From NCBI RefSeq assembly GCF_003217095.1, contig NZ_QJSR01000006.1:13377-77376 (forward strand): a stretch of 64,000 nucleotides of DNA. The letters are read 5' to 3'. The notes below the pieces were generated by a model. That model ran no database searches and was not told where the DNA came from. It saw only the letters and a program-made list of their open reading frames with translations. Below, piece by piece: positions 11,827-51,533 of the stretch (positions are counted from its first letter, which is position 1; every line of letters starts with the position of its first letter). The translations under genes were made by a program, and so were the position numbers. This DNA is from Rhizobium sp. PP-CC-3A-592 (GTDB taxonomy: Bacteria > Pseudomonadota > Alphaproteobacteria > Rhizobiales > Rhizobiaceae).

Positions 11827-12090
11827 TTGTATTAAAACGGACGAATAGGTCACCCGTTTTCACAACGTCGCCGAGTTGTATCGAATATATGATTTTCGTG
11901 ACCACGCATATCATAGCTCAACACTGACAACCACTCTGACGGAATTACCGACGGCTCTTCAGGAGTCGCTGGGATCGCAAAGCTACCAACCAGATGCTGA
12001 CGACCGGAGAAACGAACCGCCGAAGACGCGGATATTGTGGCCGCCCCATTTTCGATGTCAAAAAACACCTTGTTGCAGTAATCCCGCACC
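11827..12090. other. Intergenic region with no recognisable gene
   Basis: About 260 bases between the biotin carboxylase stop and the IS256 remnant. Short open frames exist on both strands but have no recognisable motifs. This is the downstream end of the long catabolic operon, so a terminator might be expected; no convincing hairpin plus T-run was found. Confidence 0.3.
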
Positions 12091-13449
12091 CTAATTCGCA
12101 GTAACCATCAGTTCGCTCACAAACGCAGTGTTGAAATCGCCTGACCGAAATTTCGGATGGCTCAGCACCATTTTATGGAAGCCGGCTGTGTTGGTCACGC
12201 CCTCGATCACGACTTCATCGAGGGCTCTGAGCATCCTCGCGATGGCCTCGTCCCGATCCTTACCCCAGCACACGAGCTTGCCGACCATGGAATCGTAGAA
12301 GGGCGGGATGACGTAACCAGTTTCGATATGTGTTTCCATCCGCACGCCGAAGCCGCCAGGAGGATGATAGCGAACCACTTTTCCGGGCGCCGGCCGGAAA
12401 TCCAGGCTTGGATCTTCCGCATTGATACGGCATTCGATGGCATGGCCTGAAAAGCGAATCTCCTCCTGCTGCAGCGTGATCGGCAATCCGCTGGCGATTT
12501 CGAGCTGCATTTTGATCAGGTCGATGCCGGTCACCATTTCGGACACCGGATGCTCGACCTGGATGCGGGTGTTCATCTCGATGAAGTAGAAGGCACGGGT
12601 GCGATTGTCGAAGACGAACTCCACCGTGCCGGCATTCTTGTAGTGCACGGCCTCGCAAAGCGCGATGGCGGCCTGTGCAAGCGCTGCCCGCAAGGTGTCG
12701 TCCAGAACGGGCGACGGTGCTTCCTCGATGAGTTTCTGATTGCGCCTCTGCGCCGAGCAGTCCCGCTCTCCCAGATGAAGCGTGCGGCTGCCGTCGGATA
12801 TGACTTGGATCTCGATATGGCGGATATCGGTCAGATAGCGCTCGATATAGACGGACGCATCGCCGAAGGCGGTTTCGGCTTCCGACATGATCTCGGACAG
12901 GTCGCGCTCCAGTGTCTCGCGCCGCTCGACGACACGCATTCCCCGCCCCCCGCCGCCGGCCGCCGCTTTGATCAGCAACGGAAAGCCGATCTCGTCGGCA
13001 ACCGCCAGCGCGTCCGCTGCCTCCGAAATTGCCCCGATCGAACCGGGAACGTTGGGAACGCCGGCCTGGCGAGCGATCTTCTTGGCTTCGATCTTGTCGC
13101 CCATCTGGCGAATGACGTGCCCCGACGGGCCGACGAAGATCAGGCCTTGCCTCTCGCAGGCTTCGGCGAATTCGGCATTCTCGGCGAGAAACCCGTATCC
13201 GGGATGGATGGCCTCAACTTTGTAGGCGAGCGCCGCGCTGATGATGGACTGCTGGTTGCGATAGCTGAACTTCGCCTGGGCAGGTCCGATGCAGATGGCC
13301 TGGTCGGCAAGCCTGACCGGCAGCGAACCGGCATCCGCCTCGGAATAGGCGATCACGCTGCGAATACCGAGTTCTTTGCAGGCGCGGATGATCCGCAGAG
13401 CGATTTCGCCGCGATTGGCGATGAGAACGCTCTTCATGAGGTCTGGCAT
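12091..13449 (-). CDS. Biotin carboxylase subunit of a biotin-dependent carboxylase
   Basis: 452 aa, the length of a stand-alone AccC-type protein. ATP-grasp fold with N-domain IANRGEIALRIIRACKELGI, glycine-rich ATP loop AAAGGGGRGMR and the active site EMNTRIQVEHPVSEMVTG. It would carboxylate biotin with ATP and bicarbonate. The usually invariant QRRHQK motif reads QRRNQK here, checked at codon level, an unusual change near the nucleotide. Start chosen at the ATG at 13449 because GGGAG lies 9 to 13 bases upstream; an in-frame GTG at 13470 is the alternative. Last gene of the operon, 127 bases after the carrier protein gene, and probably partner to it and to the carboxyltransferase rather than the housekeeping acetyl-CoA carboxylase. 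Confidence 0.88.
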   Translation of the reverse strand: MPDLMKSVLIANRGEIALRIIRACKELGIRSVIAYSEADAGSLPVRLADQAICIGPAQAKFSYRNQQSIISAALAYKVEAIHPGYGFLAENAEFAEACERQGLIFVGPSGHVIRQMGDKIEAKKIARQAGVPNVPGSIGAISEAADALAVADEIGFPLLIKAAAGGGGRGMRVVERRETLERDLSEIMSEAETAFGDASVYIERYLTDIRHIEIQVISDGSRTLHLGERDCSAQRRNQKLIEEAPSPVLDDTLRAALAQAAIALCEAVHYKNAGTVEFVFDNRTRAFYFIEMNTRIQVEHPVSEMVTGIDLIKMQLEIASGLPITLQQEEIRFSGHAIECRINAEDPSLDFRPAPGKVVRYHPPGGFGVRMETHIETGYVIPPFYDSMVGKLVCWGKDRDEAIARMLRALDEVVIEGVTNTAGFHKMVLSHPKFRSGDFNTAFVSELMVTAN

Positions 13450-13576
13450 TGTCCGTCTCCCGATATCCACCTTTCAAAGCGCGCCGCACGAAACAGAGTC
13501 ACGCAATGCGCTTCAAGTTGCTGTTTTGATGCATGTCATCGTCCCGAAACCGCTGCACGCTCTCGGGCGACATGCC

Positions 13577-14086
13577 TCAGCCGTTCTTACGGATGATCAT
13601 GAGCGGCTGGCCATACTCGACGGGCTGCTCGTTCTCAACGAAGATTCGGGCCACGGTTCCGGCGACGCCGGCCTCGATATTGTTCATCAGCTTCATCACC
13701 TCCACGATGCACAGCACCGTCTGCGCAGTGACCGCATCTCCCGTCTTTACGAAATTCGGCGCGCCGGGCTTGGGGCCCGCATAGAAGGTGCCGACCATCG
13801 GCGCCTTGATCAGGACCTCGTCAGCGGCAAGCTCCGCGGTCGCAACCGAGGCCGCACCGGAAACCAGAGCAGCTGACGGCGTCTCGATCGCAGGGGCCGG
13901 AACGGGCGCCGCAACTGAGACCGGCGGTGCAGAAAGGCTTGGCTGCGGCGGCGTCGCCTGTGCGTTGCGCGAGACCGACAATTCAAGATCGCCGAATTTC
14001 AGCGAGAATGTCTGGACATCCTCCGTAACGTTTACCCAGTCGATGATCGCTTTCACGTCCTTGAGGTCGATGGCTTTAGCCGACAT
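13577..14086 (-). CDS. Biotin carboxyl carrier protein
   Basis: 169 aa. N-terminal 35 residues resemble AccB; a Pro/Ala-rich flexible linker (about 43-88) follows; the C-terminal biotinyl domain holds the biotin-accepting lysine in EVMKLMN. It shuttles carboxybiotin between the carboxylase (next gene) and the carboxyltransferase (preceding gene). Its start overlaps the end of the carboxyltransferase gene by 11 bases, suggesting translational coupling. GGGAG lies 10 to 14 bases upstream of the ATG. Confidence 0.9.
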
Positions 14087-15617
14087 TTTCGTGTTCTCCC
14101 TTTTCGAGGCTGATGTGCATATCGGCCGTTTTCAGGACGATGGTTCCGGTGGTCTTTTTCCGGTGAAGGCTTTTGATGAGATCGAGAAGCGTGGAGGAGC
14201 CGTCGGCGGGCCGCACCCCGGACGCCACGGCCTTCTGCATCTCGTCGACCTGCGTGCCGGCAAACATCGCGCGTAGCAGCACATGATCGATGCTGTCCTC
14301 GGGATGACGCATTTTGATGTCCGGCAGCATCGGTGGGATCGGGCTCGGCTCGGGTGCGATGCTGGACGCACCGTTCGAGACGATCCTGGAATGCAGTTCC
14401 GGCGCGATCGGTGCCAGAAGCTTGCCGTAGTAGCCGAGCGCATATTTCTTGATTTCGTTCGGCACCACGCCGTATCGGTCGCCCGAAATCATGTTGATGA
14501 CGGCCTGCGTGCCGACGAACTGGGCAAACGGCGTGATCATGATCGGAAAGGCCAGTTCGGCGCGCACCCGGGCAACCTCGTAGAGAAGCTCGTCGAACCG
14601 GTGCGAGAGACCGGCCGTTTCCAGTTGCGAACGGAAATTGGACAGCATGCCGCCCGGCAATTGATGCATATAATGAAGGCCGTCATATTCGACGGGAACG
14701 CCGAGCGGCTTGCCCTCGTCCTCCGCGATCCCGATCAGTTTCTGCGAGATGGCGTCGATAGCCTCGTCATTGACATTCACCGTGTATCCGAGCGCCCGGA
14801 GATCGCGCACGATGCGCTGGGTGGACGGCTGGCCGGCCCCGTTCGCAAGCGGCGCGATCGACGTGTGCAGCGCATCGCAGCCAAGTTCTACCGCCTCCAG
14901 ATAGACCAGCGGCGCGAGCGCCGTCAGACAATGGCTGTGCAGTTCGAGCGGGCGGTCACCGATGACGGCCTTGATCGCCGGCACCAGCGTGCGGATGCGT
15001 TCGGGCGTCAGCAGCCCACCCGCATCCTTGAGCATAATGGCATCGACATCGGTCTTCTCGATCAGCTCGCGGGCTTTGGCGATATAGAGCTCGTCGGTAT
15101 GCACCGGGCTTTCGCAGAACGACAGGGCACCGAAGGTGGACGCGCCGAGCTCCTTGGCCCGAATGAGGCCGGGCGCGATATTGTCGATGTCGTTCAGCCC
15201 GTCGAACGAGCCAATGATGCGGAACCCGTTGGCATAGAGCCGTTCGACCCAGGCCGTAATGACGTCGTCGGCGAGGAAGTCGAAGGAAGCGATGTTTTTG
15301 GAACGTATGAGGGCGCGAAACCGGGTGTTCGGTGCAGCCTTGTGGGCGAGCCTGACCCGCTCCCACGGATCCTCCTTCAGATAGCGCACCGCAACGTCGA
15401 ACTGGATCGGCGCCATCAGGTCGACCTGATCGAAACCGCCACGGTCGAAATCGTCGGCCATCGCAAGGATGTGGTCCGTGCGCATGCGCGTTGCCCACAG
15501 GCTCTGATGCGCGTCGCGCAGGGTCGTGTCGATGATCCTGATCTCGCGCCGGCTGTTGGCCGGGCGGCCGCCCATGCTCATGATGCCTGCGATCGTTTGC
15601 CTGTCCTGGCTTGTCAT
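14076..15617 (-). CDS. Carboxyltransferase subunit, pyruvate carboxylase/oxaloacetate decarboxylase type
   Basis: 513 aa, HMG-CoA lyase-like TIM barrel as in pyruvate carboxylase CT domains and oxaloacetate decarboxylase alpha. Visible motifs: [18 protein letters not shown] with the metal Asp; MLKDAGGLL with the lysine expected to be carbamylated; and HSH as the metal HxH pair. The residues after HSH (CLTALA) differ from the usual Thr/Asn-rich THDTSG-like segment, and the following helix reads [20 protein letters not shown], so the acceptor may not be pyruvate. It forms a three-gene carboxylase with the downstream carrier and biotin carboxylase genes. TTGGAG precedes the ATG. The substrate cannot be decided from sequence alone. 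Confidence 0.82.
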
Positions 15618-15657
15618 CTTGTGTCTCCAACCACTGTTTCGTCACGTCGAACGGGAA

Positions 15658-16746
15658 TCATGCAGCCAGCCTCTCGACGTGGTGGATCGCCAGCGCGACG
15701 TCGGCGGCGGTTATCGTGAAGGGCAGGTTCTTCAGGTGCGGCGCGGTCATCGTCCATTCGGCGATGTCGGCGATCTCGGCGTCCGTCGCATTGTCCATGC
15801 CAAGCTGCTGCAGGGTCGTTGCCAGGTCCAGCGAGCGGTGGAACGCGATCATGTCGACAAGCTCGGCATCGGGACGGCCCTCTGCTGCAAGTTGCACCAG
15901 CACGCCCCAGGCAACATGCTGGCCGTGAATGGCGCTTTTCGCGCCACGCGCTTTGACGAGGCCCCGCGTCAGCGAATGCGAGAGCGACAGTCCGCCATTT
16001 TCGAAACCGAGCCCGCTCATTAGGATCACCGCCTCGACGGTCGCCTCCAGAGCATCGCTGACCTCGCCGCGCTCCACCGATTGCAGCGCCGCAGCCGAAT
16101 GCGCGCGCAGCACGCGATAGCAGGCATCTGCGATGGCGATGCCTGTAATCAACGGACGCGTGCCGAAGGGCGTGATGCCGTGGCCGGCCAGGCATCCCTC
16201 CGCCTCAAACTTCTTCGAGATCGCGTCACCGATGCCCGCGCGAAGAAACAGTGCGGGTGCAGCGGCGATCAGCTTGGTATCGACGATCACGGCTTCCGGG
16301 CTGCGCTTCAAACGATCGACGGAAATCATGACATGCTGGTCGTCGTACATGGCAATCGACGCGCTGGTCGGGCTGTCGTTGGAGGCGATGGTCGGCACCG
16401 TAATGACGTCGATGCCGAGCTTCAGCGCCAGCCCCTTGGCCGCATCGAGCGACTTGCCGCCCCCGATGCCGATGGCAATAGCCGGAACCACGCCGCAGAG
16501 CGAGGTAATCAGCGCATCGATCGCCGGATAGGTGATCTCCCCGCCGAAGGTCAGGATAACCGGCGTTAGCCCGGCGTCCCGGAGATTGGCCTCAACGCGA
16601 GCTCCCATCCTTTCGAGAATGAAGGCATCGGCGATCACCACAGGCGACGGGCCGAAGGCTGCGGCGACGCGGCCAAGCGCGTCCAGCGCGTCCGGCCCCT
16701 GGATGTAGCGATGCGGTGCGCCGAAGATCCGGAAAACACCCGTCAT
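15658..16746 (-). CDS. Iron-containing alcohol dehydrogenase, glycerol dehydrogenase-like
   Basis: 362 aa, family III (GldA-type) dehydrogenase. NAD site GIGGGKSLDAAK; loop VPTIASNDSPTS; metal ligands in GIGDAISK (Asp), LSHSLT (His) and HGQHVAWG (His). It would oxidise a polyol or reduce a ketone or aldehyde in the pathway of this operon, for example interconverting glycerol or a related polyol and its ketose. The start overlaps the end of the cupin gene by 4 bases (ATGA), a strong sign of co-translation. The exact substrate is unknown. Confidence 0.85.
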   Translation of the reverse strand: MTGVFRIFGAPHRYIQGPDALDALGRVAAAFGPSPVVIADAFILERMGARVEANLRDAGLTPVILTFGGEITYPAIDALITSLCGVVPAIAIGIGGGKSLDAAKGLALKLGIDVITVPTIASNDSPTSASIAMYDDQHVMISVDRLKRSPEAVIVDTKLIAAAPALFLRAGIGDAISKKFEAEGCLAGHGITPFGTRPLITGIAIADACYRVLRAHSAAALQSVERGEVSDALEATVEAVILMSGLGFENGGLSLSHSLTRGLVKARGAKSAIHGQHVAWGVLVQLAAEGRPDAELVDMIAFHRSLDLATTLQQLGMDNATDAEIADIAEWTMTAPHLKNLPFTITAADVALAIHHVERLAA

Positions 16747-17297
16747 CTCGTGATCCCCGCCGCATGATCGGCACCGAGCCCGATTGCCTCGTAGTGGTGG
16801 CGGGCGGCAGCAAGCTTGGTGAACACGTCCTCATAGCCGAGCGCGACCCCGTCCGGATCGACATAGACGTAGCCGCCGGTGACGTGGAACAGCGTGATCA
16901 TTTCCGAAACGCCCTCGGGTACCACCAGCGTATGGGTCTCGCCCGGCGGCTCGAAGGCATAGCTCTGCGGCACCGCTTCCCAGTCGTGCTCCAGATAGGA
17001 CCAGCGGCCCCGCAGGGTGAAGGCATGGACCGGACCGGCATGCCTGTGACGCGACAGGACGCCGGAAGTACGGACCCTGAGAAGGTTGACGTAATAGCCT
17101 TGGCTGACGCACAGCACGAGCGGCTTGAACCAGACGCCCTCGGCCTGCGGCACCCACAGGTGCTCGTCCGCATCGAGATCGATGGCGCCCGGCATGAAGA
17201 CATCGTCCATCATGCCGAAGGGCTGCGGCCTGCGGTAGGCGATCTTCGATGTGTCGCGGCGATCCGGCACGGTCTCGTTTCGTGTTTCATTCAGCAT
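16743..17297 (-). CDS. Cupin of the 2,4'-dihydroxyacetophenone dioxygenase family
   Basis: 184 aa. Single cupin barrel with SRHRHAGPVHAFTLRGRW and EPPGETHTLVVPEG, holding the His residues and Glu that bind iron in this family, and the typical tail GYEDVFTKLAAARHHYEAIG. Named members cleave a C-C bond between two oxygenated carbons, but most relatives have no assigned substrate, so the family name should not be read as the reaction. In this operon it may act on an oxidised sugar or alpha-hydroxyketone intermediate. Start at the ATG at 17297 preferred: AGGAGACA lies just upstream, and the gene overlaps the SDR stop by 11 bases. Confidence 0.78.
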   Translation of the reverse strand: MLNETRNETVPDRRDTSKIAYRRPQPFGMMDDVFMPGAIDLDADEHLWVPQAEGVWFKPLVLCVSQGYYVNLLRVRTSGVLSRHRHAGPVHAFTLRGRWSYLEHDWEAVPQSYAFEPPGETHTLVVPEGVSEMITLFHVTGGYVYVDPDGVALGYEDVFTKLAAARHHYEAIGLGADHAAGITR

Positions 17298-18093
17298 GAT
17301 TGTCTCCTGTCTCCCGGCAATCCAGGGGGAATGCGTCGCTGGGAGCACCCCAGGAGCAGTAGCCGCCGTCTACCGGCAGCGTAATCGCGGTAATGAACTT
17401 CGCCTTGTCGGAAGCAAGGAACACCATTGCCTCGGCAATATCCTCGGCGAAACCGAGCGTGCCCATCGGCGTACGCCGGCGAATGCGCTTCTCGTCGATC
17501 TTGCCGTCTGCGATCAGCTTTTCGGTCAGCGGCGTCAGCATGTAGCCGGGCGCCACCGCATTGACGCGGACATTGTGCGGACCCCATTCGCAGCCGAGCA
17601 CCTGCGTCAGCATGCCTATCCCGGCCTTGGCGGCGCTGTAAGCGGTTCGAACCGGCAGGCCGAGCAGGCCGGCAATCGAATTGAGATTAAGGATGACCCC
17701 GGATCTCTGCGCGATCATCGACGGCGCCACGGTCTTCGAAACCAGGTAGGTGCCGGTCAGATGGACATCGATCAGCCGTTGCCAATGCGTCAACGTCTGG
17801 TCCACCGTCGGCGTGAAGTTGTCGGGCATGCCGGCATTGTTGACGAGAATGTCGATGCGGCCATAGCGCTCGAGAACGGCCGCGATCATGGCGCCGACAT
17901 CCGCCTCGCTGGATACGTCTCCGCCCACCGAGAAATGGCGGTCGCCGAGACGAGCGGCAGCCTCTTTCGCCGCGTCCGCGCGCAGGTCGTTGATGACGAC
18001 GATGGCACCCTCGCGGGCAAACGACGTCGCCGTGGCATAGCCAAGCCCGCTCGCGCCGCCGGTGACGAGCGCGATCCTGTCTTTCAGCAACAT
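17287..18093 (-). CDS. SDR family oxidoreductase
   Basis: 268 aa classical short-chain dehydrogenase. Cofactor site TGGASGLG; acidic residue in INDLRAD suggesting NAD preference; NNAG; catalytic Ser in LNLNSIAG and YSAAK; late PVDGGY. Probably oxidises a secondary alcohol of the imported substrate to a ketone. The start ATG at 18093 follows AGGAGACAAAG, and homology begins right after it (LLKDRIALVTGG); a longer in-frame extension upstream has no homology and would overlap the transketolase gene. Lies 11 bases after the transketolase C-terminal subunit gene. Confidence 0.9.
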   Translation of the reverse strand: MLLKDRIALVTGGASGLGYATATSFAREGAIVVINDLRADAAKEAAARLGDRHFSVGGDVSSEADVGAMIAAVLERYGRIDILVNNAGMPDNFTPTVDQTLTHWQRLIDVHLTGTYLVSKTVAPSMIAQRSGVILNLNSIAGLLGLPVRTAYSAAKAGIGMLTQVLGCEWGPHNVRVNAVAPGYMLTPLTEKLIADGKIDEKRIRRRTPMGTLGFAEDIAEAMVFLASDKAKFITAITLPVDGGYCSWGAPSDAFPLDCRETGDNHAE

Positions 18094-18104
18094 CTCTTTG
18101 TCTC

Positions 18105-19091
18105 CTATTGCGCGTCGACGATGGCGCGGACGAAGCGCGACAGGTCGACCCCGTACTTGGCTTCCAGATATTCCTGGGATCCGCACTCGAAGAAGCTGTC
18201 GGCAAGACCGATCTTGATCGTCGGCTTGACGATGCCCGCCTCGTAGAGCGCTTCGACGACGAGCGAGGCAAGGCCGCCCGAGGTCTTGTGGTTCTCAGCA
18301 ATGACGATGCGATCGAAACGCTTCGCGAACGCGATGACGGACGCCGCATCGAAGGGCTTGATGGTACCGACATGCAGCACGCCTGCGTCGATACCCTGCT
18401 CCTGCGCGATCCGGCCGGCATCCAGCGCACGCGCGGTCATGTAACCGGTTGAGATGATGCCGACGTCGCGCCCCGGCCGCAGCACCTTGGCCTTGCCGAC
18501 CTCGAAGCGGTAGTCTTCACCCAGTTCGACCGGGACCTTGCCGCGAAGGTTGCGCACATAGACGGTGCCCGGAATATCCGCCACGGCCCGGACCACCTGC
18601 TTCAACTCGGTCGCATCGCACGGATCGATGATGGTGAGATCGGCGATGCCGCGCATCATGTTCAAGTCTTCGGTGGCCTGATGCGTGGCGCCGTAGCCGT
18701 TGACGAGCCCCGGCATGCCCGCGAAGATCTTGACGTTGGCCATCGAGTGGGCGCAGGCGAGCGCCACGAAATCGTAGGCGCGCCGGGTGATGAAGACGGA
18801 ATAGGTTGTGCAGTAGGCAATCTTGCCCGTTTTCGCGAGGCCGGCCGCCGTCATGATCAAGCTCTGCTCCGCCATGCCGACATTGAAGAAGCGCTTGGGA
18901 TGGGCATCCCGGAACGGAAGGATGTCGCTGTACCGACCCATGTCGGCGGTGAGGCCGACGATCTCGGGACGTTCGCTTGCCAGCGCGGCCAGCGTGTGGC
19001 CGAAGGGGGCGATCTCGGTCACCTTGCCGGCGACGTCGATGAGCTCGCCCATGCCGCGCGTGCGGCCGGATACGGTCTGGGCCTCAGCCAT
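18105..19091 (-). CDS. Transketolase, C-terminal subunit
   Basis: 328 aa, carrying the pyrimidine-binding and C-terminal domains of a transketolase split over two genes. The conserved Glu for thiamine activation is in FFNVGMAEQSLI; GLVNGYGATHQATEDLNMMR and the C-terminal VIAENHKTSGGL segments are typical. With the N-terminal subunit it transfers a two-carbon ketol unit between phosphorylated sugars. Start chosen at the ATG at 19091, which overlaps the stop of the N-terminal subunit gene by 8 bases. Split transketolases in catabolic operons usually serve a dedicated sugar, as in D-apiose breakdown, rather than the housekeeping pentose route. Confidence 0.9.
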   Translation of the reverse strand: MAEAQTVSGRTRGMGELIDVAGKVTEIAPFGHTLAALASERPEIVGLTADMGRYSDILPFRDAHPKRFFNVGMAEQSLIMTAAGLAKTGKIAYCTTYSVFITRRAYDFVALACAHSMANVKIFAGMPGLVNGYGATHQATEDLNMMRGIADLTIIDPCDATELKQVVRAVADIPGTVYVRNLRGKVPVELGEDYRFEVGKAKVLRPGRDVGIISTGYMTARALDAGRIAQEQGIDAGVLHVGTIKPFDAASVIAFAKRFDRIVIAENHKTSGGLASLVVEALYEAGIVKPTIKIGLADSFFECGSQEYLEAKYGVDLSRFVRAIVDAQ

Positions 19092-19926
19092 TGTGTGTCT
19101 CCAGTTCTTGTGCAAGGGCGGTCCATTCGGAAGGGTCGATCCGCACGAAATGCGCGCGGTCGCGCGCCATGATGGTTGGGATGCCGAAGCCGGGGGTCGT
19201 ACGCATCACGATGGCCTTGGGCTTGCCGTTGGCCGTGCGCGCGGCGGCGAGCGCCGAGGTCAGTTGCTCCACGCTGTTGCCGTTGATCTCCACCGTCTCG
19301 TAGCCGAACGCCGAAAGCTTGTCGGCTACGGGCTCGATCCGCACCGTAACCGGCCCATCGGCCTGGATGCCGTTGCAGTCGACAAGGACGACGAGGTTGT
19401 CGCAGTTGAAGGTGGCGCCTGCCATCGCGGCCTCCCAGGTCGATCCCTCCTGAAGTTCGCCATCTGAGAACTCGCAGAAGACCCGTGCGGAGGAGCCGTC
19501 GAGCCGGAGCCCCATTGCCATGCCGACGGCCTGTCCGAGGCCGTGGCCAAGCGATCCGCCCACCATTTCCACGCCCGGCGTCTCGTCGAAGGTGCTCATC
19601 GGCAGCCGCGAGCCGTTGAGCCCGTAGGTCGGAAGCTCGTCGGGCGACAGGATGCAGGCTTCAGCGAGCACGGCATACATGGCGATGGAATAGTGGCCCG
19701 TGGACAGGACGAAGCGATCACGCCCCGGCCATTCCGGATCCTGCGGATCGTAGCGCATCTCGTGGAAGTAGAGACTCGCCAGGCAATCGGCCATGGCGAG
19801 CCCCTGCGCGATATAGCCCTCGCCCTTGCCGCTCGCCATCGCCATCATCTTGCGGCGCAGGTTCAACGCCCGCCCCTTCAGAGCCGACAGATCGACTTCG
19901 GACGGCGGATGATTCAATATGCTCAT
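19084..19926 (-). CDS. Transketolase, N-terminal subunit
   Basis: 280 aa. Thiamine diphosphate-binding domain with STGHYSIAMYA, GGSLGHGLGQAVGMA, and the metal/diphosphate motif SDGELQEG followed about 30 residues later by VDCNGIQADG. Pairs with the next gene, whose reading frame it overlaps. Its own start overlaps the end of the SMP-30 gene by 4 bases. Confidence 0.9.
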   Translation of the reverse strand: MSILNHPPSEVDLSALKGRALNLRRKMMAMASGKGEGYIAQGLAMADCLASLYFHEMRYDPQDPEWPGRDRFVLSTGHYSIAMYAVLAEACILSPDELPTYGLNGSRLPMSTFDETPGVEMVGGSLGHGLGQAVGMAMGLRLDGSSARVFCEFSDGELQEGSTWEAAMAGATFNCDNLVVLVDCNGIQADGPVTVRIEPVADKLSAFGYETVEINGNSVEQLTSALAAARTANGKPKAIVMRTTPGFGIPTIMARDRAHFVRIDPSEWTALAQELETHNG

Positions 19927-20864: not shown

Positions 20865-21538
20865 GAACGCGCCTCGACGACGGATCTTCCATTGAGGGCG
20901 GCCGTCAGTCCGGCAACGCTCGTCACCAGCACGTCCGGCGCATGGCTTTCCAGTACGGCGCGCTCATAGAAACCGTAGGTGACGGCGACAACGTCAAGGC
21001 CTGCCGCGCGCGCGGCGAGAATGTCCTGCGGCCCGTCGCCGACATAGACGGCCTCGTCGGCGCGCGCCCCGGCCCTCTCCAGTCCCAGCAGGATGGGCGC
21101 GGGATGCGGCTTTCGATCGGCGGTGTCCTCCGCCGTGACGATGGCGGCAAACAACGAGGGCTCGATGCCAGCGACGTCAAGGTCGATCAGAGTGCGTTCC
21201 AAACCCTTGTTGGTGACGACACTCGGGCGGCGACCCTGTTCGACGAGATCCACGATCATATCGCGGACGCCGGCAAACACCTTTACGTGGTCGGTGCAGC
21301 GCGGATAGGTGTCGCGATAGGCCGCGTGCAGCTCGTCGATCCGGTCGGGCGCAACGAGGGCGAACACCTCGGCCGGCCGCATGGCGAACAGGTCGGGTAT
21401 GGGGAAACGCTTCGGCGGGAACTCGCTGTCCAGCCGGGTGCGAAAGACCTGCGTGTAGCACGCGACCACCGCTGCGCGCGTGTCGACCAGCGTCCCGTCG
21501 AGATCGAAAAGGACGTGTTTCCTGAGCGTCGCGGTCAT
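20861..21538 (-). CDS. HAD superfamily hydrolase, phosphoglycolate phosphatase-like
   Basis: 225 aa. Motif I FDLDGTLVDT with the nucleophile Asp; motif II SVVTNKG; motif III/IV Lys and Asp in DRKPHPAP and VGDGPQDILAARAAG. The cap region is small and helical (residues about 20-85). It would remove phosphate from a small phosphorylated metabolite, possibly clearing a toxic side product such as a phosphorylated C2-C4 acid or sugar made by the kinases next door. Overlaps both neighbours by 4 bases. Confidence 0.85.
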   Translation of the reverse strand: MTATLRKHVLFDLDGTLVDTRAAVVACYTQVFRTRLDSEFPPKRFPIPDLFAMRPAEVFALVAPDRIDELHAAYRDTYPRCTDHVKVFAGVRDMIVDLVEQGRRPSVVTNKGLERTLIDLDVAGIEPSLFAAIVTAEDTADRKPHPAPILLGLERAGARADEAVYVGDGPQDILAARAAGLDVVAVTYGFYERAVLESHAPDVLVTSVAGLTAALNGRSVVEARS

Positions 21539-23085
21539 GGCGCGTCCTTTTTGCAGTGGGTGCGCTCGAGGAGTGCGCTACGGAGTTTCCAGAGGGGGGC
21601 AAGGTCGCGACCCAGATCGCGAAACAGGGGATAGGCACGCGCATAAGAGGCCGCGAGCGCGGGATCGGGCGCGACCGTGCTGGCGATCCGCACCATGGCG
21701 CGGGCCGCCGCAGGCAGGGTCTCGTAAAGACCGGCCGCGCGGGCAGCGAGCAGGGCGACGCCGAGCGCACCTGTTTCCTCCGCCTCCGGCACCAGTAATG
21801 TCCGGTTCATGGCAGCGGCGCAGATTTCGCGCCAGAGCGGAGACCGTGCGCCGCCGCCCGTGATGCGGATCTCGTCCACCGGCGCGTTCATCGCGCCATA
21901 GCAGTCGACCATCGAAAAGGCGACGCCTTCCATGACGCCCCGCACCATCGCCATTGGCGTGGTCGCCATGTCGAGCCCGAAGATCGAGCCGCGGGCCAGC
22001 GGCTCGTGCCGCGGGGCGGTCATGCCAGACGTGTTGAAATACGGATGGATCATCAGCCCGTTGCTGAGCGGCGCGACGGCGCGGGCTCCCACCTCAATTT
22101 CCTCGAACATGGCCTGCGGGCCGGCGGTGAACGCTTTGGCCCCAAAGGTCGCGGTGATCCAGTCGAGGCAGAGCGAGCCGCCGCCCGTGTTTGACATCAG
22201 CCTCTGCCAGCGTCCGTCCGGCATGAGAAACAGGAAGCCGACGCCGGCCGGTTCTAGCAGAGGCGCGTCGACGGTCAGGTTGTTCATGAAGCTCGTGCCG
22301 ATGACGGTGACCGCCTGCCCGCTTTCCAGAGCCCCGACGCCGATGGCGGCGGCAACGGCGTCGCCGGCCCCGGTGACGACCAGCGTGCCTTCCGCCAGCC
22401 CGGTTTCGCCGGCAGCCATTGCGGTGACGCGTCCGACGACCGCACCGGTCTCGAGAACGGGTGCCAGCCGGTCGCGCATCTCGGGAATGCCGGCAAGCGC
22501 GAACAAAGCATCCGACGGCACGCGCCTGCGGATATCGCAGGGAAAGAAGGACAGGTCGGATTCGTCCGTCGCAATGGTTCCGGTCAGCCGGTAGTTCACA
22601 TAGTCCTTGGCGCAGAAGACCGTGGCGATGCGGCCGTAGAAATCCGGATCGTTCACCTTCAGCCAGCTGAGAAGGATCAGGGGGAGCCCAGGAATCGGGG
22701 CGTTGCCGGAGATGGCGAACAGCTCCTCGACCCGTCCGTCGCCCTTCCACTGTTCGAGCATGGCGGATGCGCGCGCATCCGGCCATGCGATGGCCGGGCC
22801 GGCAGGACGTCCCGTCTCGTCCAGTGTCCAGAGTCCACCCATATGTCCGCTGACCCCGACGGCGACGATGGTGTTCGCGTCGATGCCGGCGGTGGCGATC
22901 GCCTCCCGTACGGCCTCGGCGACGCCGGCATAGGTGCCGTCCATGTCCTCCTCGTGCCAGTCCGGGTGCGGCCGAAAGCTCTGGGTCGGACGACGGGCCG
23001 TGGCCACGACGCGACCGTCGTCCGCATCGAAGATCGCAGCCTTCGTCGTCGTCGTTCCCTTGTCGATGCCGATGACGTAGCTCAT
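21535..23085 (-). CDS. FGGY family carbohydrate kinase (first of two)
   Basis: 516 aa. Actin-like ATPase fold with GIDKGTTTTKA (phosphate loop), HMGG plus WPDARA (substrate region), GAGDAVAAAIG and ITGGGARSPLWREI (adenosine). It phosphorylates a sugar or polyol. It is a clear paralogue of the next gene, sharing GIDKGT, HEED, GHMGG and AxxWPDxRA. Two kinases in one operon suggest two substrates (for example ketose and polyol) or a heteromer. Overlaps the second kinase gene and the HAD gene by 4 bases each. Confidence 0.88.
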   Translation of the reverse strand: MSYVIGIDKGTTTTKAAIFDADDGRVVATARRPTQSFRPHPDWHEEDMDGTYAGVAEAVREAIATAGIDANTIVAVGVSGHMGGLWTLDETGRPAGPAIAWPDARASAMLEQWKGDGRVEELFAISGNAPIPGLPLILLSWLKVNDPDFYGRIATVFCAKDYVNYRLTGTIATDESDLSFFPCDIRRRVPSDALFALAGIPEMRDRLAPVLETGAVVGRVTAMAAGETGLAEGTLVVTGAGDAVAAAIGVGALESGQAVTVIGTSFMNNLTVDAPLLEPAGVGFLFLMPDGRWQRLMSNTGGGSLCLDWITATFGAKAFTAGPQAMFEEIEVGARAVAPLSNGLMIHPYFNTSGMTAPRHEPLARGSIFGLDMATTPMAMVRGVMEGVAFSMVDCYGAMNAPVDEIRITGGGARSPLWREICAAAMNRTLLVPEAEETGALGVALLAARAAGLYETLPAAARAMVRIASTVAPDPALAASYARAYPLFRDLGRDLAPLWKLRSALLERTHCKKDAP

Positions 23086-24614
23086 GCCGCCAGCGCTCCG
23101 TGCGCCAGCAGGTCGGCCCGTGCCGATGAGTATGCGCGATAGACGTCGCGGGTCATTCGATAGAGTTCGAACCAGCCCTCGTAGTCGCGCGCGGCGACCG
23201 GATCGGGCTCGAAGCGCGCCATCACGTGGGTCGTCGCCGCAGCGGCGGTCTCAAGATCCGGCCAGAGATCGACGGCAACACCGGCGAGCATTGCGACGCC
23301 GAGCGCCCCGGACTCCTCGACGGAGGCGATCTCGATCGGCATGTTGCAGATGTCGGCGAACATCTGCGCCCAGAAGGCGCTCTTGGCGCCACCGCCGGTC
23401 AGCACCAGGGATGTCGGTCGGGTGCTCATTGCCTCGAAGCAGTCTCGCGTCGCAAAGCAGAGCGCCTCATAGACCGCGCGAAGCAGGTGGTCGTAGCCGG
23501 TGTGGCTGCCGACGCCGAAGAAGCTGCCGCGTGCCCGCGTGTCGAAGAAGGGAGCAAGAACGCCGCTGCCATTGATGTAAGGGATGAAGACCACACCGTT
23601 CGCTCCGCGTGCAACGGCCGCGGCCCGGACTTCGAGCGCTGCGAAATCCGGTGTTCCCTGCCCGGTCTGCGGCGCACCGAAGCGGTCGAGGAACCAGTCA
23701 AAGGCGATGGTGCCGGAGGTATTGGGCAGGATGCGGAGATAGTGGCCGAGCGGCATGGCGAAGAGAAAGCCAAGTCCCTCCGGCGCGCGCTCGGGACCGC
23801 TCATCACCTGGCTGTTGAGGCAGCTCGTGCCCAGCACAGTGAGGGCCGCACCCGGACGAAGCGCGCCGACCCCGAGCGCGTTCGCGCAGGCATCCCCGAG
23901 CCCGGTGACGACAGGCGTCCCCTGATGCAGTCCTGTCAAGGCGGCCGCCTCGGCGGTCACCGATCCCGCAATGGCCCCGGAGGGCAGGATCGGCGGCAGC
24001 CTCTCGGCCCAGGCGGATGCGCCGCAGAGTTCCATCACGCGCAGCGAATGCATGCGCGCGTCGATATCGCCCGGAATGAACGAGACGTCCGAGGGGTCGG
24101 TGGAGATCTCGCCCGTCAGGCAGAAGCGCAGGTAGTCCTTCGCACAGAGCACGGCACGCGTGCGCGCCACTGTTTCCGGCTCGTGGCGGGCAAGCCAGCC
24201 GAGCAGCATCGCCGTGATACCGGGCATGAGTCCGTTTCCGGAGATGGCAAAGATCTCCGCCAGAAGGCCCGCCTCCTCCATCGCCACCTGGTCGGCCTGG
24301 GCGCGGCTGTCCGGCCAGCAGATGGCGTTGCGCACGGGCACGCCCTGCGCATCGATCAGCCAGGCCCCGCCCATGTGCCCGGCGATACCGATCGCGACGA
24401 CATCCCGACCCGACACAGAGGCTTTCGCCATCGCCTCGCGAATGACCGCGACGCAGAGCGCCCACGTCGCCCGCGGATCCTCTTCATGAAAAGCGGGTTT
24501 CGGCTGAAGCACTTCCACGCGGCGCTGTGCGATCCCGCAGGGCTTGCCGGCCGTGTTGAAGACCACCGCCTTGACGACGGAGGTGCCTTTGTCGATGCCG
24601 AGGACGTAGCGCAT
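23082..24614 (-). CDS. FGGY family carbohydrate kinase (second of two)
   Basis: 510 aa. Same architecture as its neighbour: GIDKGTSVVKA, GHMGGAWLIDAQG, WPDSRAQAD, GLGDACANALGVG and LTGGGAKSAFWAQMF. It diverges from the other kinase mainly in the central insert. Probably acts on a related sugar or polyol. Starts 9 bases after the ABC ATPase stop, so the kinases are co-transcribed with the importer, pointing to phosphorylation straight after uptake. Confidence 0.88.
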   Translation of the reverse strand: MRYVLGIDKGTSVVKAVVFNTAGKPCGIAQRRVEVLQPKPAFHEEDPRATWALCVAVIREAMAKASVSGRDVVAIGIAGHMGGAWLIDAQGVPVRNAICWPDSRAQADQVAMEEAGLLAEIFAISGNGLMPGITAMLLGWLARHEPETVARTRAVLCAKDYLRFCLTGEISTDPSDVSFIPGDIDARMHSLRVMELCGASAWAERLPPILPSGAIAGSVTAEAAALTGLHQGTPVVTGLGDACANALGVGALRPGAALTVLGTSCLNSQVMSGPERAPEGLGFLFAMPLGHYLRILPNTSGTIAFDWFLDRFGAPQTGQGTPDFAALEVRAAAVARGANGVVFIPYINGSGVLAPFFDTRARGSFFGVGSHTGYDHLLRAVYEALCFATRDCFEAMSTRPTSLVLTGGGAKSAFWAQMFADICNMPIEIASVEESGALGVAMLAGVAVDLWPDLETAAAATTHVMARFEPDPVAARDYEGWFELYRMTRDVYRAYSSARADLLAHGALAA

Positions 24615-24623
24615 GCCGGGGCC

Positions 24624-25781
<1,158 letters not shown>

Positions 25782-25792
25782 GACTGGTCTCC

Positions 25793-26668
25793 TTACCGTC
25801 CGCCGCTGCCGACGGAAAAACTGCGAATGAGAAAGCGCTGCATGTAGTAGGAAAGGACGAGCAGCGGAGCGATTGCGACGATGCCGATGGCCCCGAGCTG
25901 GCCCCAGTTCGGCTGCTGGAACAGGAAGAAGCTCGCCAGCGCCTTGGGCAGAGTGATGACTTTCTCCCCGGTCAGGACCAGCGCGAACAGAAACTCGTTC
26001 CAAGCAAAGATCATCGCGAGGATCCCGGCCGTCAGGATGCCGGGGGCGGACAACGGAAAGAGCACATCCCAAAAGAGGCGGTACCAGGGGGCTCCGTCGA
26101 TGCGGGCGGCCTCCTCGTAAGTCTTGGGGATCTGGCGGATGAACTCGGCGAGCAGCCAGATGACCAGCGGCAGGTTCATGAAGGTGTAGACGATGACGAG
26201 ACCGGTATAGGTGTCGAACAGCGACAGTTCCTGAAACAGGAGGTAGAAGCCGATCACCGGCACGATGGGCGGCATCATCCGCAGCGACAGGATGGTGAAG
26301 CTCAGCTGCCCGTGCGGCGGAAACCGGCGCGCCAGCGCATAGGCGGCGGGATATCCAAGCACCAGGCACAGTACCGTGGAGATCGAGGCGACGATCAGGC
26401 TGTCGCCGATCCCCTTGCCGCCGCCAATCGCCCAGCCGTCAGAGAAATTGACCAGCGTGCCGTTGACCGGCAGGATCGAGGGCGGGCTGGTGAACAGCTC
26501 GGCATAGGGCTTGAAAGCGGTGAGCAGCAGCCAGGCGAGGGGCAGCAGGAATAGAGCGAGCACCACGACCAGCACGACATGCTTGACGATGACGGACAGG
26601 CGAGCGGCAAGCGTCTCGGTCTCGGGGAGAGAGCTGTCTGCAACGGGCGGTGAGACTGTGGTGGTCAT
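25793..26668 (-). CDS. ABC sugar-type permease, MalG family
   Basis: 291 aa, six predicted membrane helices, the first at about 28-50. The ATPase-coupling EAA loop is YEEAARIDGAPWYRLFWDVLFPLSAPG. Typical second permease of a CUT1 importer. ATG at 26668 overlaps the stop of the first permease by 4 bases; the frame is open further upstream without homology. Confidence 0.9.
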   Translation of the reverse strand: MTTTVSPPVADSSLPETETLAARLSVIVKHVVLVVVLALFLLPLAWLLLTAFKPYAELFTSPPSILPVNGTLVNFSDGWAIGGGKGIGDSLIVASISTVLCLVLGYPAAYALARRFPPHGQLSFTILSLRMMPPIVPVIGFYLLFQELSLFDTYTGLVIVYTFMNLPLVIWLLAEFIRQIPKTYEEAARIDGAPWYRLFWDVLFPLSAPGILTAGILAMIFAWNEFLFALVLTGEKVITLPKALASFFLFQQPNWGQLGAIGIVAIAPLLVLSYYMQRFLIRSFSVGSGGR

Positions 26669-27663
26669 GGCTTGGCTCCCATTGCGGACTGCGCGGCAGC
26701 GTTGAAGACCGTGGGTGGCAGGGGCGCGTCGGAGATGGGGCCCTTGTCGCGTCTCTTGGCAAAGCCGAGGATGGCCATCGTTCCCACGGTGAGAAGCACG
26801 AGCTGGATGATGCTCAGCGCACCCGCAATCGAGAACTCGAAGCGCCCGAAGCCCATGTCGTAGGTGTAGTAGGCAAGGTTCTGCGTGGCCGTGCCCGGAC
26901 CGCCGCGCGTGAGGATGTAGATGATGTCGAAGACGCGGAAGCTGTCGATGAAACGCAGGACAAAGGCGACCATCATGTAGGGAAACAGCATCGGCAGCAC
27001 GATGTTGACGAAGGTCTGCCAGCGAGTGGACCCATCCACCCGGGCGGCCTCGTAGACCCGCTGGGGGATCGAATTGAGGCCTGCGAGCAGCACGATCATC
27101 ACGAAGGGCGTCCACTGCCACGTATCGACGACGACCAGTGTCGGCAGCGCCCATTCCGGCGATTGCGCCCAGGCCGGCGGGTTGAGACCGATGGCCTTGA
27201 GGAAACTGTTCAGGGGGCCGTAGATCGGGTTGAGGAAGAGGTTCCAGGAAAAGCCGACGACGATCGGCGCGACCATCATAGGGATCAGGAACAGCGAGGC
27301 GTAGACCTCGCGGCCGCGTGTCACACCGTTGAGCAGCAGTGCCATGCCGAGACCGGCGACGATTTGCAGCGGCACGGCGACCAGCGCGAAGATCACAGTG
27401 ATGCCGAGACTGCGCCAGAAACGCGGGTTCGACATCATGCGGGTGAAATTGTCGATGCCGACCCACTCGATCGGGATCGGAATGGCCAGCTGATAGGACG
27501 TGAAGGACGCATAGATCAGGTAGGCGAACGGCCAGATCGACAGCAGGGCCAGGAACGTCATCGCCGGTCCAAGCAGGAACAGCGTGGCCCGCCGTTCCGC
27601 CGCAGTATCCCGGTTTCTCGTCGCGGGCGGCAAAGCTGCGCCCTGAACGGCTATCGTATTCAT
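26665..27663 (-). CDS. ABC sugar-type permease, MalF/UgpA family
   Basis: 332 aa, six helices, the first at about 28-50 (FLLGPAMTFLALLSIWPFAYL). EAA loop YEAARVDGSTRWQTFVNIVLP. The C-terminal tail is unusually long and polar for the family. ATG at 27663 preferred over 27693. A strong hairpin separates it from the binding-protein gene upstream. Confidence 0.9.
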   Translation of the reverse strand: MNTIAVQGAALPPATRNRDTAAERRATLFLLGPAMTFLALLSIWPFAYLIYASFTSYQLAIPIPIEWVGIDNFTRMMSNPRFWRSLGITVIFALVAVPLQIVAGLGMALLLNGVTRGREVYASLFLIPMMVAPIVVGFSWNLFLNPIYGPLNSFLKAIGLNPPAWAQSPEWALPTLVVVDTWQWTPFVMIVLLAGLNSIPQRVYEAARVDGSTRWQTFVNIVLPMLFPYMMVAFVLRFIDSFRVFDIIYILTRGGPGTATQNLAYYTYDMGFGRFEFSIAGALSIIQLVLLTVGTMAILGFAKRRDKGPISDAPLPPTVFNAAAQSAMGAKP

Positions 27664-27731
27664 GATGTTATCCGAATCTGTATCGACGAACAAAGGCGCG
27701 CGGCAGGATCTGCCACTGTGGCCGGCCTGCA

Positions 27732-27752
27732 GCCGCCGGAGGACCCGGCGGC
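27732..27752 (-). other. Intercistronic hairpin between binding-protein and permease genes
   Basis: Perfect 8-bp stem GCCGCCGG/CCGGCGGC with a 5-base loop, 14 bases after the binding-protein stop. No T-run follows, so it is more likely an mRNA 3'-end stabiliser or partial attenuator that keeps binding-protein levels above permease levels than a full terminator. Confidence 0.7.
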
Positions 27753-27765
27753 CGTGGCGGATGGA

Positions 27766-29262
27766 TCAGGACCAGTAGCCCTGCTTGATCATCCGTTGAC
27801 GGTATTCGTCGTAATGTGCGATCTGGCGGTCGCGACCGTAGGTCTCGGTCGTTTCCTCGAACTCCGACGTCATCGCCTCCAGCGCCTCCTTCGGCGTCGC
27901 CTGGCCGGTGATCGCGCGGGGGACGTGCTGCATGATCGAGGAGAGATAGCGGTTCGTGCCGGGGATAGAGATGTCCAGATAGGCCTTGGGCGCGGCCAGG
28001 AGTTCCTTGCTGACGCTCGCGAAATTGTCTGCAAAGCCGGATTCCGACTGGAGCGGGAACGTGCTCTTCGGATCGTCGAACATGCTGTTGCGCCACGGGT
28101 CCATCAGCGACTGCTCGAAGGTTTCGGCCACCCACCGGTTGGACTGTGCCGATTGCTGCATCCAGGCGATGACCTTGAAGGCGCCTTCCTTGTTCTTGGA
28201 ATTGCCGGCGATGCCCATTGCGCGCCCATAGGGCAGGATCGTCACGTCGCCGAAGCTGCGGGCGCACTTGATCTTGCCGGCAACCTTGGAAATCTTGGGG
28301 TCGGCAGCGCCTTTTGGCATGTCGGTCCACCAGTTGGCCTGGGCGACGCGGCCGTCGAAGAAGATCTGCCGCCCGACGTCCCACGGCATCGCCTGGGCGA
28401 GGTCCTTGGGCATGAAGGCCGACATCTCGGTGTAGCGGCGGATCGCCTCCTCCCCGATCTCGTTGAGGAGCTGCGGCTTCATCTGGTCGTCGAACAGCTC
28501 GCCGTAGCGCACGCCTTTTTCCGAACCGAGCTGAACCAGCTGGTTGATGAAGAAGGCATAAACGAAGAAGCTCGTGACCTCGACGTGTCCATAGAGATTC
28601 TGATCGGGACGTGTGAAGAATTCCGCGGTGTCACGATACTCCTTGTAGCCCTTCGGCGGGGCCAGGTCGTAGCCGTACTTCGCCTTGAAGGTCTGCATCT
28701 CCTGCTCGTTCTCGAACAGGTCGGTGCGGTAGGTATTGATGAACATGTCGCCATCGATCATGACGCCGACAATCTTGTTCTCGTAGATGTTGAGCTGCTG
28801 GAACGGCTTGGCGATGTCGGAGAAGTTCAGCTGCTCAAGCGTGCCTACCTCCTCGAGCGGCGTTAGGAATGGCCCGAAGTCGCCGACAAAATTAGGCCAG
28901 AAATCGAACACGTCGAACCGGGCCGTGCCCTGGCGCAGCGCAAGCAGGTTCTGGTCGTACATGTTGCCGAGCGGGTAGGACGTGAAGTCCACCTCGATAC
29001 CGGTCGCTTCCTTAAACTCCGGCGCGAAGGTCTTGAGGATCGGCGTGAACGCGCCGCTGTCAAGCCCGACGGTAACCTTGCCGCTGCCCTCCTGCCCCGA
29101 TGCAGACAGCACGCCGCCAAAGGTGGACAGGGTGGCGGCGGCACCGAACATGGCGCTGCGGCGCATCAGTTCGCGTCGCGAAATCAGTCCCTTAGTGTCG
29201 ATGCTGCCGAGGACGTCGAGATCGCGCTCCACGGACTTTGGGCGTCTATTCAGAAGATGCAT
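27766..29262 (-). CDS. ABC transporter extracellular solute-binding protein (Tat-type leader)
   Basis: 498 aa, family 1 (CUT1) solute-binding protein. The first 60 residues hold a long N-region and a twin-arginine motif ISRRELMRR followed by a hydrophobic stretch AMFGAAATLSTFGGVL, suggesting export in folded form. Mature part: KVTVGLDSGAF, IEVDFTSYPLGNMYDQN and many aromatic residues typical of sugar binding. First gene of the long operon; the divergent regulator starts 152 bases away. Size is above the usual 400-450 aa because of the long leader. Confidence 0.88.
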   Translation of the reverse strand: MHLLNRRPKSVERDLDVLGSIDTKGLISRRELMRRSAMFGAAATLSTFGGVLSASGQEGSGKVTVGLDSGAFTPILKTFAPEFKEATGIEVDFTSYPLGNMYDQNLLALRQGTARFDVFDFWPNFVGDFGPFLTPLEEVGTLEQLNFSDIAKPFQQLNIYENKIVGVMIDGDMFINTYRTDLFENEQEMQTFKAKYGYDLAPPKGYKEYRDTAEFFTRPDQNLYGHVEVTSFFVYAFFINQLVQLGSEKGVRYGELFDDQMKPQLLNEIGEEAIRRYTEMSAFMPKDLAQAMPWDVGRQIFFDGRVAQANWWTDMPKGAADPKISKVAGKIKCARSFGDVTILPYGRAMGIAGNSKNKEGAFKVIAWMQQSAQSNRWVAETFEQSLMDPWRNSMFDDPKSTFPLQSESGFADNFASVSKELLAAPKAYLDISIPGTNRYLSSIMQHVPRAITGQATPKEALEAMTSEFEETTETYGRDRQIAHYDEYRQRMIKQGYWS

Positions 29263-46546: not shown

Positions 46547-46666
46547 CGTTCTGACCTTTGCCCACCCGTTCGGGCGGGTATTGCTGCCCGCATCCCACCC
46601 GTCTGGCTGGCTATGCCGTGTTCCCATCCCCTCCTAGGCTGTGCTTCACGAACCAAGGGGGTCCAC

Positions 46667-51501: not shown

Positions 51502-51533
51502 CGCGCCGGAGGTCAACAAAAAGGGGAATGACC

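What the first reader, a model, noticed from the sequence alone, without database searches (positions are those of the whole stretch)
12091..29262. Fourteen-gene operon for uptake and breakdown of an unidentified sugar or polyol, with its own biotin carboxylase
An importer (27.8-24.6 kb), two kinases, a phosphatase, a lactonase, a split transketolase, an SDR, a cupin, an iron-type alcohol dehydrogenase and a three-subunit biotin carboxylase lie on one strand with repeated 4-11 base overlaps. Each family is known, but I know of no described pathway with this combination; a dedicated biotin carboxylase beside a sugar-type transketolase is the odd part. One reading: the imported compound is oxidised, phosphorylated and split by the transketolase, and a keto product is carboxylated to enter central metabolism.
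Basis: partly seen in the sequence, partly recalled or inferred. Interest (0 to 1): 0.75.

Follow-up and report, generated by a model that had tools for sequence, protein, structure and literature searches.

The report
Sugar-breakdown operon with ketone carboxylase
A row of sixteen bacterial genes looks like an undescribed route that imports a small sugar-like compound, clips a two-carbon piece off it and adds CO2 to a leftover ketone; the compound itself is still unknown.

Summary
Window 29262-12091 (minus strand) carries 16 genes, not 14; 9 of 15 junctions overlap by 4-11 bases. The whole set, in order, with its divergent regulator, recurs in Rhizobium lusitanum at 64-90% protein identity. 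A 47-kb stretch of a marine Paracoccaceae plasmid has regulator, importer, kinases, phosphatase, lactonase, transketolase (TK) and glycerol-type dehydrogenase, but no orthologous cupin or carboxylase.

The carboxylase is probably not pyruvate carboxylase. Its carboxyltransferase lacks the WGGATFD motif and is split 100/100 from six oxaloacetate/pyruvate-type rows. Of 33 close loci, 17 have 3-oxoacid CoA-transferase subunit A nearby. A ketone substrate is likely.

The split TK belongs to a nine-member clade (100/99) shared with Actinobacteria. Canonical phosphate-orienting residues are lost, as in all 24 split TKs compared (PMC11659671). Fe-type dehydrogenase and, in most, SDR and a putative lactonase recur around it; kinase and phosphatase in six of nine.

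Best reading: C2 removal from a polyol-derived ketose, plus carboxylation of a leftover ketone. Substrate and step order are inferred. One six-family literature search found no such combination.

The parts
27766..29262 (-). ABC importer binding protein (SBP_bac_1); N-terminus with a twin-arginine-like stretch (seen by eye)
   Evidence: Pfam 1.4e-15; no PDB sequence relative at E<=0.001; 84% R. lusitanum, 77% La6
26665..27663 (-). ABC permease 1 (MalF/UgpA-like)
25793..26668 (-). ABC permease 2 (MalG/UgpE-like)
24624..25781 (-). ABC ATPase (UgpC/MalK-like)
   Evidence: NF008653 345 bits (cut-off 432)
23082..24614 (-). FGGY kinase 1 (XylB-like)
   Evidence: Pfam 2.9e-56; best solved relative xylulose kinase 2itm
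21535..23085 (-). FGGY kinase 2 (nearest to the kinase of three actinobacterial TK loci, 46-50%)
20861..21538 (-). HAD phosphatase (PpaX/phosphoglycolate phosphatase-like)
19923..20864 (-). SMP-30/gluconolactonase-type lactonase
   Evidence: Pfam 4.2e-43
19084..19926 (-). split transketolase, N-terminal (ThDP-binding) half
   Evidence: Pfam 2.2e-37
18105..19091 (-). split transketolase, C-terminal half; canonical phosphate-orienting residues lost
17287..18093 (-). SDR dehydrogenase
   Evidence: Pfam 9e-63; 54% in the Cnuibacter TK cluster
16743..17297 (-). cupin of the 2,4'-dihydroxyacetophenone dioxygenase family; H-x-H and second His aligned
   Evidence: 1.2e-30 to 4p9g
15658..16746 (-). GldA-type Fe-ADH (glycerol dehydrogenase subfamily)
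   Evidence: NF006941 347 bits over cut-off 336; PDB glycerol dehydrogenases
14076..15617 (-). carboxyltransferase subunit of a biotin-dependent, probably ketone-type carboxylase
13577..14086 (-). biotin carboxyl carrier protein (EVMKLMN motif)
   Evidence: TIGR00531 135.8 bits over cut-off 115.2
12091..13449 (-). biotin carboxylase (start placed at the ATG; mechanical ORF starts at 13470)
   Evidence: TIGR00514 654.6 bits over cut-off 626.5
29415..30788 (+). divergent MocR/EhuR-like regulator; PLP lysine position is Arg
   Evidence: alignment; 81% R. lusitanum, 59% La6
30827..31918 (+). PRISE-like NAD(P) reductase, conserved beside the regulator in R. lusitanum (71%)
   Evidence: Pfam PRISE 37.1 bits over cut-off 27

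Best explanation
A probably horizontally acquired catabolic operon. A small polyol or sugar is imported by the ABC system (family-level evidence). The GldA-type dehydrogenase makes a hydroxymethyl ketone (2-ketose). The split transketolase moves its C2 ketol unit to an acceptor, leaving a shortened carbonyl compound. The XylB-like FGGY kinases and the HAD phosphatase adjust phosphorylation on either side of that step: either they phosphorylate the ketose and dephosphorylate the fragment, or they phosphorylate a free ketose made by the transketolase. SDR plus lactonase oxidise an aldose fragment through its lactone to an acid. In this version the leftover carbonyl, or part of it, is a methyl ketone or hydroxyketone. 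The dedicated three-subunit biotin enzyme carboxylates it with ATP and bicarbonate to a 3-oxo acid, usable by a CoA-transferase/thiolase set encoded elsewhere in the genome, while the dioxygenase-type cupin can cleave a hydroxymethyl ketone. Shown here: gene content, conservation, carboxylase subgroup, transketolase clade and residue losses. Inferred: every reaction, the order of steps and the substrate.
For: Same 16 genes plus regulator and PRISE gene, in order, in R. lusitanum. The TK falls in a nine-row clade, 100/99. Kinase, phosphatase, lactonase-type hydrolase, SDR and GldA recur with it in actinobacterial loci L153, L154 and L172, with a PTE-family protein (Pfam on L154 only; the other two 61 and 70% identical to it) in place of SMP-30; an MBL-type one is next to TK in L170 and 9 kb away in Cnuibacter. 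CT: six OadA/PycB/PC rows separate from 27 others incl. window at 100/100, and WGGATFD is in 6 of 6 and 0 of 27 (names of rows L010-L012 are my inference from length and similarity). 17 of 33 close CT loci have CoA-transferase subunit A and 19 of 33 a thiolase (two of them weak, 31 and 37%) within the fetched flanks. Own genome has IclR, CoA-transferase A/B and a PcaF-like thiolase together. CT, cupin and the TK module share one operon in window and R. lusitanum and one plasmid in Cnuibacter. Of 23 genomes found by their CT (23 of the 79 loci were put to this search), 3 carry TK at >=55% identity, against 3 of 344 Actinomycetes-class genomes (the query genome left out); Fisher p = 0.004, or 0.03 without R. 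lusitanum. Cupin histidines align with a solved 2,4'-dihydroxyacetophenone dioxygenase (their role as iron ligands is recalled).
Against: TK-clade loci exist without the carboxylase: the La6 stretch, and no CT reached the threshold (E 1e-150) in the three actinobacterial TK genomes found independently of CT. 20 of the 23 CT genomes lack the TK at >=55% (six of them have TKs at 46-49%). Loss of phosphate-orienting residues fits badly with a phosphorylated TK substrate although kinases are present, and the loss is shared by all 24 split TKs compared, so it is not specific to this operon. No single substrate is shown to use all 16 enzymes. The Fisher comparison mixes phyla and ignores relatedness; many of the 33 CT loci are closely related Corynebacterium. 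The CT tree is unrooted and contains no sequence of an assayed enzyme.
Confidence: 0.45

Rival explanations
1. The biotin enzyme is an independent ketone- or keto-acid-using module (for example acetone or levulinate carboxylase) that travels with the operon but serves another substrate; the sugar part works alone, as in La6.
For: The La6 stretch and the actinobacterial TK loci lack CT; 32 of 33 close CT loci show no TK in the fetched flanks, 20 of 23 CT genomes lack the TK at >=55%. Vreelandella CT sits with a CoA-transferase, a thiolase passing the PcaF cut-off and a TRAP importer, which would fit levulinate to 3-oxoadipate.
Against: Same operon position kept in two genera, three subunits 64-82% identical; linkage on the Cnuibacter plasmid and enrichment.
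Confidence: 0.25
2. A rare unbranched sugar or polyol route: ketose phosphate is cut by TK, the off-pathway aldose phosphate is dephosphorylated (HAD), oxidised to the lactone (SDR) and hydrolysed (lactonase); the carboxylase handles a minor by-product.
For: Accounts for the six enzymes that recur in L153, L154 and L172 without any branched carbon; putative lactonases of three folds recur.
Against: Phosphate-orienting residues of TK are lost; does not need a ketone carboxylase or hydroxyketone dioxygenase.
Confidence: 0.2

Closest known systems
D-apiose transketolase pathway (AplK, AptA/AptB; gene tags from PMC13001218, passages and section 19 read; sequences from E. coli SE15)
   Same: FGGY kinase plus split transketolase acting on a non-standard ketose (reaction recalled; the paper shows growth on D-apiose and names the genes)
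   Different: AptA/AptB only 35/33% and AplK 24% identical to the window proteins; no lactonase, HAD, cupin or carboxylase annotated in that cluster; AptAB keeps His at the H26 and H100 positions, the window TK does not
Sulfo-transketolase pathway for sulfoquinovose (SqwGH; PMC11659671, passages and section 22 read)
   Same: Split transketolase with altered head-group residues removes C2 from a non-standard ketose onto G3P
   Different: Its motif is RAFDR; the window reads E/Y/Y/M/R (by eye through the 6yaj alignment); no SQ or SEu isomerase family seen in the operon; extra kinases, lactonase, carboxylase; SqwGH sequences themselves not compared
Hpe acetovanillone/4-hydroxyacetophenone pathway (HpeCBA; PMC9618137, passages read)
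   Same: Three-subunit biotin carboxylase of a methyl ketone; window CT is on the same side of the tree as loci with Hpe-like layout (L031, L033)
   Different: HpeCBA uses aryl ketones phosphorylated by HpeHI; no such kinase here; CT only 39-41% to those loci; the assayed HpeB itself was not compared
2,4'-Dihydroxyacetophenone dioxygenase (4p9g, 5bpx)
   Same: Cupin, E=1.2e-30, His positions aligned
   Different: Aliphatic or sugar context; activity untested

Membership tests
Pyruvate carboxylase / oxaloacetate decarboxylase CT | WGGATFD motif and grouping with OadA/PycB/PC | tested here: not met
   motif in 6 of 6 OadA/PycB-like/PC rows, in 0 of 27 others incl. window; split 100/100
Biotin-dependent ketone carboxylase (HpeCBA/XccBCA-like) | separate CT, BCCP and BC genes together | tested here: met
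Biotin-dependent ketone carboxylase (HpeCBA/XccBCA-like) | CT on the non-pyruvate side of the tree, with metal-site Asp, Lys, His, His | tested here: inconclusive
   residues present and side met, but no assayed Hpe/Xcc sequence was in the tree and residue roles are recalled
Biotin-dependent ketone carboxylase (HpeCBA/XccBCA-like) | ATP-dependent carboxylation of a ketone | not testable with these tools
   needs enzyme assay
Transketolase | metal-binding D155, N185, I187 (E. coli numbering) and E160 of the N half | tested here: met
   all aligned (metal role as in PMC11659671 section 22, E160 recalled)
Transketolase, sugar-phosphate type | RSFHR phosphate-orienting motif (PMC11659671) | tested here: not met
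   read by eye through 6yaj as E/Y/Y/M/R, first position beside a gap; S, F and H positions also changed in all 24 split TKs
Apulose-4-phosphate transketolase AptAB | orthology to AptA/AptB and AplK | tested here: not met
   33-35% and 24% identity; AptAB on a long branch, its place unsure
Sulfo-transketolase SqwGH | RAFDR motif and isomerases in the cluster | tested here: not met
   SqwGH sequences were not compared directly
2,4'-dihydroxyacetophenone dioxygenase | cupin with H-x-H and later His | tested here: met
   RHRH and GETHTL align with RHYH and GEGHTL
2,4'-dihydroxyacetophenone dioxygenase | O2-dependent C-C cleavage of a hydroxymethyl ketone | not testable with these tools
   needs assay

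The most novel reading that the evidence does not exclude
The operon degrades a methyl-branched, isoprenoid-derived polyol such as 2-C-methyl-D-erythritol (or the 2-methyltetrols of isoprene aerosol). Dehydrogenation gives HOCH2-CO-C(OH)(CH3)-R, the transketolase transfers its C2 unit to an acceptor and releases a methyl ketone (acetol or its phosphate), and a new biotin carboxylase, helped by a hydroxyketone dioxygenase, rescues that ketone. This would be the first coupling of transketolase C2 removal with ketone carboxylation, and the related loci without kinases would do the same with terpenoid triols.
Probability: 0.12. Interest if true: 0.85.

Novelty: new variant of a known kind. Interest (0 to 1): 0.6.

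Why it matters
If right, it adds a carbon-fixing, transketolase-based route to the catalogue of sugar and polyol breakdown. It also suggests that genes auto-named 'pyruvate carboxylase subunit B / acetyl-CoA carboxylase' in the relatives seen here (Arthrobacter, Cnuibacter, Corynebacterium, Vreelandella, Caballeronia and others) are ketone carboxylases. The conserved set gives a concrete test list for an orphan substrate.

Tried and rejected
Rejected: plain pyruvate carboxylase; apiose pathway; sulfo-TK. Led nowhere, listings only: full-text searches for apulose plus transketolase (8 papers), methylerythritol utilisation (27 papers, 20 listed), acetone plus biotin (0 papers), 'split transketolase', methyltetrol biodegradation (279 papers, 8 listed; PMC6529453 on cloud-water microbiota holds 'methyltetrol' once and was not opened), levulinate carboxylase (4 listed), the six-family combination. 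One search (41 papers, 10 listed) showed nothing on apiose transketolase beyond PMC13001218, already seen. PMC11968277 (passages) was read and not used. The thiolase/acyl-CoA ligase sets beside TK in La6, Cnuibacter and L170 have no counterpart in the window; I could not fit them into one scheme. In one search the row made from L159 was in a wrong frame and was ignored.

Structure prediction was not used: the rule admits only the window and loci of certain tools, so the binding protein would have had to be folded without relatives.

Full report
WHAT IS THERE. The minus strand from 29262 to 12091 holds 16 genes in one direction: binding protein, two permeases, ATPase, two FGGY kinases, HAD phosphatase, SMP-30 lactonase, two transketolase (TK) halves, SDR, cupin, GldA-type Fe-ADH, carboxyltransferase (CT), BCCP and biotin carboxylase. 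With starts placed by homology, nine of 15 junctions overlap by 4-11 bases. A divergent MocR-type regulator (29415-30788) and a PRISE-like reductase (30827-31918) sit upstream.

CONSERVATION. The importer, regulator and PRISE gene follow on a contig of the same length, L152. Identities run from 64% (BCCP) to 90% (TK C half). In the 47-kb stretch L034 of plasmid pLA6_001 (Paracoccaceae) there are 12 orthologues incl. the regulator at 59-83%; its SDR is only about 35% identical, and no orthologous cupin or carboxylase was found there; the rest of that genome was not searched for them. The CT has no close orthologue in 60 other relatives searched (best other match 36%), which suggests lateral acquisition. 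A group II intron reverse transcriptase and an IS256 remnant lie downstream.

THE CARBOXYLASE. Automatic families call it PycB/AccB/AccC. A 33-row tree puts three OadA rows (two annotated so, one named 5S subunit between oxaloacetate decarboxylase gamma and beta genes), one PycB-like row and two PC-like rows (the last three named by me from frame length and similarity) on one side and the other 27, window included, on the other, at 100/100. All six carry WGGATFD; none of the 27 does. The 27 include loci with the gene layout of the Hpe pathway: kinase-type genes, three carboxylase genes and a HAD phosphatase in L031, and kinase-type genes with three carboxylase genes in L033. HpeCBA was shown to carboxylate phospho-acetovanillone (PMC9618137, passages). 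I did not have the assayed HpeB sequence, and the tree is unrooted. Among 33 close loci (L039-L068, L087, L088, L096), 17 have a 3-oxoacid CoA-transferase subunit A and 19 a thiolase in the fetched flanks, two of the latter weak; several flanks are short and many of the loci are related Corynebacterium. In Vreelandella L053 the thiolase passes the PcaF cut-off. This is what a ketone-to-3-oxo-acid carboxylase would need. The window's own genome carries IclR, CoA-transferase A/B and a PcaF-like thiolase on another contig; the search counted one stop inside the subunit A match.

THE TRANSKETOLASE. A first tree of 23 rows gave a clade of six (99/100). With L170-L172 added and the two long-branched rows (E. 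coli TktA, AptAB) left out, 24 rows give a clade of nine at 100/99: window, R. lusitanum, La6 and L170, with Cnuibacter, Nakamurella (L154), L172, Herbiconiux (L153) and L171. Against E. coli TktA the donor- and acceptor-side residues H26, H100, H461 and D469 are changed, while H66, D155, E160, N185, H261, E411 and H473 align (roles largely recalled). The RSFHR phosphate-orienting motif named in PMC11659671 (section 22) reads, by eye through the solved split transketolase 6yaj, as E/Y/Y/M/R. Across the 24 rows the S position is Y or F, the F position Y, the H position M, L, S or N, the D469 position Y and the last R is kept (the first R was not tabulated). So the loss marks a wide group of split transketolases, not this operon alone. 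The variable part of the substrate is probably not a normal sugar phosphate, which counts against the simple order 'phosphorylate, then split'.

THE RECURRING SET. Within the clade, L153, L154 and L172 carry an FGGY2-like kinase (46-50%), a PTE-family hydrolase, a HAD phosphatase (43-46%), SDR (40-42%), both TK halves and GldA (43-47%). In the stretches read, L170 and Cnuibacter lack kinase and phosphatase but share an MBL-type lactonase, Zn-ADH, ALDH and an LLM-family oxidoreductase (55-58% between the two); no SDR match was found in L170. L171 is a 6-kb contig with an LLM match, SDR, TK and GldA. So six of nine loci have kinase and phosphatase, and eight of nine a putative lactonase, in three folds; in Cnuibacter it is about 9 kb away. 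PTE and MBL family names do not prove lactonase activity.

IS THE CARBOXYLASE PART OF IT? For: same operon in two genera; same plasmid as TK, SDR, GldA and cupin in Cnuibacter; 3 of 23 CT-scan genomes (23 of 79 loci put to the search) have TK at 55% identity or more, against 3 of 344 in a sample of the Actinomycetes class; Fisher p 0.004, or 0.03 without R. lusitanum. Against: the La6 stretch lacks it, 32 of 33 close CT loci show no TK in their flanks, and none of the three TK genomes found without CT reached the CT threshold. The comparison mixes phyla.

HOW IT MOST LIKELY WORKS. Import; oxidation to a hydroxymethyl ketone R-CO-CH2OH by the GldA-type enzyme; C2 transfer by the split transketolase; kinases and phosphatase around that step; SDR and lactonase for an aldose fragment; ketone-type carboxylase and dioxygenase-type cupin for a ketone fragment. 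The chemistry is general knowledge of these families; no reaction was tested. A methyl-branched polyol such as 2-C-methyl-D-erythritol would give exactly a methyl ketone plus a C2 unit; this is the boldest reading and rests on chemistry alone.

PRINT RECORD. A search for six of the families together gave 0 papers. This covers open-access PMC only.

Noticed in passing
L053 6821-17900 (Vreelandella maris): CT-BCCP-BC beside a CoA-transferase, a thiolase over the PcaF cut-off, TRAP importer genes and a related cupin (55%): a candidate levulinate carboxylase making 3-oxoadipate.
   Followed up: partly
window 29415-30788: MocR-type regulator in which the PLP lysine (SFSK-like motif, recalled) is Arg in window, R. 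lusitanum and La6, so it may sense a non-amine effector without PLP.
   Followed up: partly
window 30827-31918: PRISE-like reductase kept beside the regulator in R. lusitanum (71%); no match in the La6 stretch.
   Followed up: partly
window 43862-53651: MalT-like LuxR regulator, hydantoinase B/A pair nearest to caprolactamase but far below cut-offs, and PotA/PotB-like importer genes.
   Followed up: no
window 9585-11914: Group II intron reverse transcriptase and IS256 transposase remnant just downstream of the operon.
   Followed up: no
L170, L035, L034: Thiolase-like protein (with an annotated OB-fold/Zn-ribbon partner in L034 and L035) and ADP-forming acyl-CoA ligase beside the TK module in distant bacteria; role unexplained.
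   Followed up: partly
L129, L130, L131: A second split-transketolase group (Pantoea, S. fredii NGR234, Sphaerotilus) with SDR or another NAD(P) oxidoreductase, LysR regulator and MFS, TRAP or ABC transporter.
   Followed up: no
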